From Chaetoceros tenuissimus (Eukaryota; Bacillariophyta; Thalassiosirophyceae; Chaetocerotales; Chaetocerotaceae), in contig BLLK01000047.1 of assembly GCA_021927905.1 (NCBI GenBank), forward strand, positions 1,860,001 to 1,924,000: a stretch of DNA of 64,000 nt, written 5' to 3'. A program made the position numbers and the translations under genes. Below, piece by piece: positions 34,640 through 35,632 of the stretch. Position 1 is the first letter of the stretch. Every line of letters starts with the position of its first letter. The notes under the pieces are model-generated. The model made no database searches. It was not told the origin of the DNA and worked only from the letters and a program-made list of their open reading frames with translations.

Positions 34640-34712
34640 CGCAAAAGGATGTGTCAAAAACGGGTCAGATTTGTATTCTAGAGTCCGTTTCGTCATTAAT
34701 TCTTTTCATTTC
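34640..34712 (-). promoter_or_regulatory. Candidate SECIS element in the 3' UTR of the glutathione peroxidase
   Basis: On the minus strand, ATGA (34696-34693) opens a stem (GAAACGG paired with CCGTTTT, one G-U). After a small bulge, a second short stem encloses an A-rich apical loop, AUACAAA. The 3' side of the core is TTGAC (34657-34653), giving the tandem G-A/A-G pairs of the SECIS quartet. An outer helix AAAAG/CTTTT lies beyond an internal loop. It starts about 40 bases after the stop codon. The fold was drawn by eye; helix II has one C-U mismatch next to the core and one internal mismatch. Confidence 0.6.
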
Positions 34713-34749
34713 AAAATAACCCCTCTCCCAGATTCAAGCCTGAAGAATA

Positions 34750-35277
34750 TTAGAGCTCGTCATCTTCAGCCATGAGTGCTTCAATGTCTGATTCCACATT
34801 TCTTGGAACAGAAACCTTTCCACTCTTGCTGACTAGAAATTTCCCATTGAAGTTCCAGGTTGGGTCTGGAGCACCTGACTCAGCCTTCATATGCTTCCAA
34901 ATCTCGGATGCATCTGGTCCCTTCACATTCCCTAACTTCATCAGGATACCAGGAAAATGTTTAGATCTTGCAAACTCAGCAATCTTATCATCGGAGTCAA
35001 ATTCTTGCGCTCCAAACTCACGAGATGGAAACGCCAAAATCACTAGATCGTCAGCCCACCGACTACCGAGTTTCTCAAACTGAGCATACTCGCGGCGGGT
35101 TGCTCCTCATCTAGAGGCAACATTGGTGGCGTAAATCACCTTCCCCTTGAAGTCGTCCATAGAAATGGAGTCACCGTTAGATGCTGTTCCTGTTAGTGAA
35201 TAAAGGCTCATTGTTGATAGTGATGCTGTTGCTAGAATCTTTGCTGATGGCGATTTCAGTGCAAATCTAGATAACAT
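34750..35277 (-). CDS. Glutathione peroxidase, probable selenoprotein (TGA = Sec57)
   Basis: Read from the ATG at 35277 through the TGA at 35107-35109, the frame is open to a TAA at 34750, giving 175 residues. The TGA falls exactly at the catalytic position, ATNVASR-U-GATRREYAQF, where the family has Sec or Cys (NVAS-U/C-G-T). The Trp-Asn pair is present in DPTWNFNGKF (W141, N142). A SECIS-like fold follows the stop at about 34640-34710. The enzyme reduces peroxides with glutathione or thioredoxin. The N-terminus (MLSRFALKSPSAKILATASL) looks like a mitochondrial or plastid presequence. The usual catalytic Gln in the FPCNQFG motif is replaced: FPSREFG has Glu87. Automatic annotation would cut this gene in two at the TGA. 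Confidence 0.88.
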
Positions 35278-35632
35278 AATCTTCTTGCGAGTATGATTAA
35301 ACCGGTTCAATAAAAAACAGAACTCAAAACAGATACTACATACCGTCGTAGACTACGATGATGCTGATCGATATCCTTCTTCATTCTTCATTCATATTTT
35401 GTAAGTACGGAGAAAAATGAAGAAGGCCTTTAGAGGCTTTTTGACACGTGACTGATATACTAAAACACTAAAACTGTGCTCACTCAAACTGCTTTGATGC
35501 TTTGATAGATCTTTGGTGCAACAACGGCAAACACAAAAATGCATCAACTCCTCTCATTTCTTCAATTCTAGGAAACATAGACTGCTCATACACACTTTGC
35601 AACTATTAATCTATCCATATATATATGCGTAA
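35278..35632. other. Divergent promoter region GPx / 35633 gene
   Basis: 355 bases. No ORF, repeat or RNA gene recognised. Confidence 0.35.

What the first reader, a model, noticed from the sequence alone, without database searches (positions are those of the whole stretch)
34640..35277. Glutathione peroxidase with in-frame TGA read as selenocysteine, plus SECIS-like element
The frame is continuous on both sides of the TGA at 35107-35109, and the TGA is exactly at the catalytic Sec/Cys position (NVASR-U-GAT). About 40 bases after the true stop, an ATGA / A-rich loop / TTGAC stem resembles a SECIS. Together these make a diatom selenoprotein that standard gene finders would split or call a pseudogene.
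Basis: partly seen in the sequence, partly recalled or inferred. Interest (0 to 1): 0.85.

Follow-up and report, generated by a model that had tools for sequence, protein, structure and literature searches.

The report
Diatom glutathione peroxidase containing selenocysteine
A diatom gene for a protective peroxidase enzyme most likely reads a stop codon as the rare amino acid selenocysteine, as diatoms are known to do, and the same codon seems to be kept in dozens of relatives whose database records misread or cut the protein.

Summary
On the minus strand, 35277-34750 is one frame of 175 codons broken only by TGA at 35109-35107. Read through, it is a glutathione peroxidase with TGA at the catalytic position and the other tetrad residues (Q91, W141, N142) intact. 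Of 45 aligned relatives spanning the site, 42 show Trp and 3 Cys. Trp is best read as TGA translated by a TGA=Trp code (inferred; their DNA was not seen). Twenty-two further records begin downstream of the site. The genome holds tRNA-Sec(UCA), SepSecS, eEFSec and SelD, and nine other genes found here with in-frame TGA at known Sec positions. All ten have AATGAC 42-90 nt after the stop and can form an ATGA/GA stem as in a SECIS; nine comparison genes without in-frame TGA lack AATGAC in 300-400 nt. The window's stem has seven pairs. Rfam lists no SECIS match for any of the ten, so its silence is uninformative. The usual apical AA is off its standard place in seven of ten, a departure. This is a sound new member of a known kind; the modest novelty is the lineage's SECIS style and a mis-annotated, mostly cysteine-free GPx clade.

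The parts
34750..35277 (-). Coding sequence of a 175-residue Sec-containing glutathione peroxidase: ATG at 35277, TAA stop at 34752-34750, single open frame
   Evidence: AlphaFold2 model pLDDT 88 with best Foldseek match human GPX4
35107..35109 (-). In-frame TGA, residue 57, at the catalytic Sec/Cys position (NVASR-U-GAT)
   Evidence: relatives read W in 42 and C in 3 of 45 there
34648..34702 (-). SECIS-like element in the 3' UTR (ATGA 34696-34693, C 34692, stem GAAACGG 34691-34685 with CCGTTTT 34663-34657, T 34656, GA 34655-34654)
34852..34857 (-). Codons of catalytic Trp141 and Asn142
   Evidence: W and N in 45 of 45 relatives; catalytic role recalled from GPx4
35005..35007 (-). Codon of catalytic Gln91
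   Evidence: Q in 43 of 45 relatives; catalytic role recalled from GPx4

Best explanation
The gene encodes a small, GPx4-like glutathione peroxidase of a diatom whose catalytic residue 57 is selenocysteine encoded by UGA. Shown here: the interrupted frame, the family match and tetrad, the pattern at the site in relatives, the Sec machinery in the genome, and a 3' element shared with nine other Sec-type genes of the same genome. Inferred: the mRNA element (AAUGAC, a seven-pair stem, GA) acts as the SECIS that recruits a SECIS-binding protein and eEFSec with Sec-tRNA, so that the ribosome inserts Sec at the UGA. The enzyme then reduces hydroperoxides at Sec57. Because the protein has no cysteine at all, the oxidised Sec must be reset by an outside thiol, probably glutathione, rather than by an internal resolving cysteine.
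For: Pfam GSHPx 78 bits with the TGA read through. PDB sequence matches are GPx enzymes, GPx4 forms foremost; the predicted fold matches GPX4. At residue 57, 42 of 45 relatives read W and 3 read C; Q91, W141 and N142 hold in 43, 45 and 45 of 45. Of the 27 other hits, 22 begin downstream of the site, 2 lack the segment (P0048, P0050), 1 is unclear there (P0029) and 2 are Cys forms of bacterial type (P0071, P0072). Machinery: tRNA-Sec with anticodon TCA in 3 loci, SepSecS 508 bits, eEFSec with best PDB hit human eEFSec 296 bits against 102 for EF-Tu, SelD 257 bits. AATGAC lies 42-90 nt after the stop in 10 of 10 Sec-type genes and 0 of 9 comparison genes (Fisher 1.1e-5). The three SelU genes were looked at only after the motif was fixed.
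Against: No transcript, protein or 75Se evidence. No Rfam SECIS match, though the nine other Sec-type genes give none either. The AA expected about 10-13 nt past the quartet (distance recalled) is absent; AA starts at position 16. By energy the stem is only at the 5.7% tail of 157 ATGAC sites in the window, itself among them. The DNA behind the relatives' W was not seen. SBP2 was not searched and the PSTK search did not complete. The Fisher value uses a motif first seen in seven of the ten genes.
Confidence: 0.95

Rival explanations
1. The gene is a pseudogene, or the TGA is a sequencing error in a Cys-type GPx.
For: One in-frame stop is the usual sign of either.
Against: The stop falls exactly on the catalytic codon of 175, with no other lesion in the frame. 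Relatives recorded in two styles (W at the site, or begun downstream of it) point to the same codon. Ten Sec-type genes of the genome share the 3' motif.
Confidence: 0.02
2. TGA is read as tryptophan here (reassigned code), as the relatives' W suggests at face value.
For: 42 of 45 relatives are recorded with W at the site.
Against: tRNA-Sec with anticodon TCA, SepSecS, eEFSec and SelD are present. TGA falls at known Sec positions in nine other genes, and three comparison genes end at TGA in my reading (L005, L020, L021). Three relatives have Cys at the site. W at a GPx catalytic position is not known to me (recalled).
Confidence: 0.01
3. The gene stops at TGA in most transcripts and makes a short 56-residue product, with Sec insertion only when selenium is plentiful.
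For: Sec insertion competes with termination in well-studied systems (recalled).
Against: The part before the TGA gives no Pfam match of its own. The part after it is at least as well kept: mean share of relatives equal to the window is 0.65 after the site and 0.55 for residues 30-56. This is regulation added to the main reading rather than a full alternative.
Confidence: 0.02

Closest known systems
GPx4 (phospholipid hydroperoxide glutathione peroxidase), human and mouse
   Same: Catalytic Sec (inferred here) with Gln, Trp and Asn partners; fold (Foldseek best match human GPX4, E 7.6e-14, TM 0.74/0.77, 34% identity); aligns over residues 24-155 with only short gaps
   Different: FPSREFG where the GPx4-type sequences shown have FPCNQFG; no cysteine in the whole protein; falls in a clade apart (100/99) from two other GPx of its own genome (GPx4 itself was not in that tree)
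Sec-type GPx of diatoms and other algae (PMC2375036, passages; PMC7539508, abstract, section 5 and passages)
   Same: T. pseudonana is reported with two GPx selenoproteins; diatoms with 20-44 selenoprotein genes; GPX in algae is mainly the Sec form
   Different: Those papers' sequences were not compared here, so whether this clade is among their GPx genes is not known
Eukaryotic SECIS element
   Same: 3' UTR place, ATGA...GA core, closing stem
   Different: AA or CC not at the usual distance in the window and in 6 of the other 9 elements; AATGAC fixed in all ten

Membership tests
Glutathione peroxidase (PF00255) | Profile match above the curated cut-off | tested here: met
   78.2 bits against 27
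Glutathione peroxidase (PF00255) | Catalytic tetrad Sec/Cys, Gln, Trp, Asn (recalled from GPx4) | tested here: met
   residues 57 (TGA), 91, 141, 142; kept in relatives
Glutathione peroxidase (PF00255) | Peroxidase activity with glutathione | not testable with these tools
   needs an assay
Eukaryotic selenoprotein gene | In-frame TGA at a position that is Sec or Cys in relatives | tested here: met
   3 Cys and 42 W (inferred TGA) of 45; Cys or TGA in the other GPx of the genome with a recognisable site, L001, L002, L004
Eukaryotic selenoprotein gene | SECIS core in the 3' UTR: ATGA / GA and stem | tested here: met
   7 of 7 pairs; core motif shared with nine other Sec-type genes
Eukaryotic selenoprotein gene | Two unpaired A (or C) in the apical loop (PMC3316567, passages, vertebrates) | tested here: inconclusive
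   AA at position 16 after the quartet, not at 10-13; the structure is a prediction
Eukaryotic selenoprotein gene | Match to an Rfam SECIS model | tested here: not met
   none listed at E<=5; none for the other nine Sec-type genes either, so this test is blind here
Eukaryotic selenoprotein gene | Sec machinery in the genome | tested here: met
   tRNA-Sec, SepSecS, eEFSec, SelD; SBP2 not searched, PSTK unanswered
Eukaryotic selenoprotein gene | Sec in the protein | not testable with these tools
   needs 75Se labelling or mass spectrometry

The most novel reading that the evidence does not exclude
In this diatom lineage the SECIS has changed its rules: a rigid AAUGAC 5' core is fixed across unrelated selenoprotein genes while the apical AA, near-invariant in vertebrates, has been relaxed or moved in most of them, implying a SECIS-binding protein that reads the core more and the loop less.
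Probability: 0.3. Interest if true: 0.6.

Novelty: new member of a known kind. Interest (0 to 1): 0.4.

Why it matters
Sec-type GPx genes are well known in diatoms, so the kind is not new. What is useful is that a GPx clade, mostly without any cysteine besides the Sec site (35 of 45 relatives), sits in sequence collections with what looks like a false Trp, a false start or a false intron at its active site. Its three Cys rows lie in two places of the tree, which would give natural Sec/Cys comparisons. The ten-gene set also gives a lineage-specific SECIS signature that could find selenoproteins that a generic model misses.

Tried and rejected
Rfam as a SECIS test: nothing for the window or the nine other Sec-type genes, so dropped as evidence either way. 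A covariance model of the genome's own SECIS elements was not built, because MAFFT did not line up the 3' arms. Loci of '-' matches were first read on the wrong strand; L001, L002, L004 and L015 were redone. L022's TGA (MsrA) is not at its active site, which reads GCFW. L027, near a tRNA-Sec gene, reads as an organellar-type EF-Tu (my reading), not eEFSec. An early stem scan found no partner for L024; later ones did. The nine comparison genes: L001, L019, L020, L021, L022, L025 and L026 have Cys at the active site; L005 and L039 have no TGA in the match and their catalytic residue was not assigned. L025 has ATGAC, not AATGAC, at 293 nt. Several of these gene ends are my own reading of open frames. 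Left out of the 10-against-9 count: L015 and L017 (Rdx, no TGA), L040-L042 (SelO pieces, 3' ends not fixed), three PMSR places without a locus, and SelD. L004 was left out of the tree because its frame is split, apparently by an intron; the tree kept the site's own column in, and Sec-to-Cys changes were not tested on it.

Full report
What is there. On the minus strand, 35277-34750 is a frame of 175 codons with one TGA at 35109-35107 and a TAA stop. Read through, it matches Pfam GSHPx over its full length at 78.2 bits; the piece after the TGA alone gives 42 bits and the piece before it gives none. The closest solved structures by sequence are GPx enzymes, GPx4 and designed GPx4 variants foremost. 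An AlphaFold2 model built on 46 sequences has mean pLDDT 88; its best Foldseek match is human GPX4 (34% identity, TM 0.74/0.77). The TGA sits where GPx enzymes have Sec or Cys. Q91, W141 and N142, the other catalytic residues by GPx4 numbering (recalled), are in place. The protein has no cysteine (sequence).

Where it is. The assembly has 41.03 Mb in 68 contigs, the window lies in a contig of 4,456,483 bases, and its G+C is 35-43% per 2 kb. Chaetoceros tenuissimus NIES-3715 is reported at 41.0 Mb, 38.9% G+C, 85 scaffolds of up to 4.46 Mb (PMC8613185, passages). That fits, but the contig count differs and the identity is inferred. The two relatives whose organism is visible are diatoms: a Bacillariaceae record (P0050) and taxid 1003142, now Pseudictyota dubia (P0048).

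Conservation. The protein search gave 72 relatives. I aligned the 45 that span the site with the window sequence. At residue 57, 42 have W and 3 have C (P0015, P0037, P0041); Q91 is kept in 43 of 45, W141 and N142 in 45 of 45; 35 of 45 have no cysteine outside the site. Of the other 27 hits, 22 begin downstream of the site, P0048 and P0050 lack the segment, P0029 is unclear there, and P0071 and P0072 are Cys forms of bacterial type. P0021 is 97% identical to the window over its 97 residues and begins where the window has a GTG codon downstream of the TGA. P0050, a gene model, equals P0018 before and after the stretch that holds P0018's W, but lacks that stretch; their C-terminal ends differ. 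The simple reading is one conserved TGA, read as Trp by some callers, as a stop by others and skipped by a model in one case. I did not see the DNA. In a tree of 50 rows the 46-row clade stands apart (100/99) from two other GPx of the same genome and two bacterial-type GPx; the three Cys rows fall in two separate places inside it, both within one weakly supported group of seven (94/70). The tool warned that long branches make the outer joins unsure, and changes of the site were not tested on the tree.

Machinery. The genome gives five tRNA-Sec matches over the Rfam cut-off. ARAGORN calls three of them tRNA-Sec with anticodon TCA. SepSecS scores 508 bits over a cut-off of 225 and SelD 257 over 125. 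The eEFSec piece has human eEFSec as best PDB match at 296 bits, EF-Tu at 102. NCBIfam's selB model stays under its cut-off; the piece covers 248 of its 581 positions. PSTK was asked for six times and never answered. SBP2 was not searched.

Other Sec-type genes. In-frame TGA at known Sec positions (motifs recalled) appears in two further GPx (L002 NVASKUGLT, L004 NVASEUGKT), SelT (L016), a SelM/Sep15-family gene (L018), two MsrA (L023, L024) and three SelU (L036-L038). This came from six family searches, of which SelO gave no TGA; other families were not searched, so the true number may be higher. Diatoms are reported with 20-44 selenoprotein genes (PMC7539508, section 5 read) and T. pseudonana with 16, two of them GPx (PMC2375036, passages).

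The SECIS. In the first seven genes AATGAC lies 42-73 nt after the stop; in eight comparison genes it is absent from 300 nt. I then looked at three SelU genes not used to find the motif: AATGAC lies at 69, 90 and 66 nt, and a relative without TGA (L039) has none in 400 nt. Seven of the nine comparison genes show Cys at the active site. Together that is 10 of 10 against 0 of 9 (Fisher 1.1e-5; part of the set defined the motif). AATGAC falls in the first 120 nt of 5.9% of shuffles of the window's 3' region. A rigid rule, AATGAC followed 30-65 nt later by GA with at least 6 of 7 stem pairs, was set on these genes and is met by all of the first seven, at a background of 0.002 per 80 nt in the window and 32 loci. 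For L002 the place the rule found differs from the better-folding one. Of the three SelU genes one meets it (7 of 7); two have 5 of 7. The window has 7 of 7. Folding between ATGA-C and X-GA puts all ten in the lowest 6.4% of 157 ATGAC sites of the window; the window element is at 5.7%. On the other side, the window element alone is not exceptional by free energy, no Rfam SECIS match is listed for any of the ten, and the AA expected some 10-13 nt past the quartet (distance recalled) is seen only in L002 and L004, with CC in L018. In vertebrates almost all SECIS examined have AA, with CC in SelM and SelO of some (PMC3316567, passages).

Verdict. It is a new member of a known kind. The part worth a specialist's time is the ten-gene SECIS set and the mis-annotated clade. 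Seven paper searches listed no title on selenoproteins of Chaetoceros or on diatom SECIS without the apical AA. Three of the listings were cut (4 of 5, 8 of 20 and 12 of 14 papers shown), I saw only titles and the starts of abstracts there, and papers outside the library were not seen.

Noticed in passing
G000 loci L006, L007, L008, L009, L010: Five tRNA-Sec-like genes over the Rfam cut-off. L010 equals L007 in the tRNA body but for one base, and has a 12-nt insert in the anticodon loop, at about the usual eukaryotic intron place; it keeps G73. Eleven tRNA-Sec predictions in the diatom F. cylindrus, and intron-bearing tRNA-Sec in Daphnia, are reported (PMC5330540, passages).
   Followed up: partly
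L009:1501-1586: tRNA-Sec-like gene whose anticodon loop reads TTA (my reading) and whose discriminator base is A, not G; ARAGORN calls no tRNA there. Probably a decayed copy, 2.8 kb from L007.
   Followed up: partly
window 35368-35431: Near-perfect inverted repeat (CCTTCTTCAT ... ATGAAGAAGG) about 90 nt upstream of the GPx start codon; only matches far below the Rfam gathering scores.
   Followed up: no
L036, L037, L038: Three SelU-type genes with in-frame TGA outside the scored Pfam match, so a stop count inside the match misses them.
   Followed up: yes
P0010, P0013, P0014, P0023, P0027, P0034: These relatives start with MG and then a Ser/Thr/Lys stretch that resembles an N-myristoylation signal (recalled), while the window protein starts with a basic, Ser/Ala-rich stretch like an organelle presequence: the clade may be sent to different places in the cell.
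   Followed up: no
L035: SelD of Cys form (CGGCGAK) in an open frame of 519 codons that extends upstream of the SelD match.
   Followed up: no
window 48835 (+): The only other AATGAC with a 7-of-7 stem in the window; it lies antisense inside a 356-codon open frame and looks like chance.
   Followed up: partly
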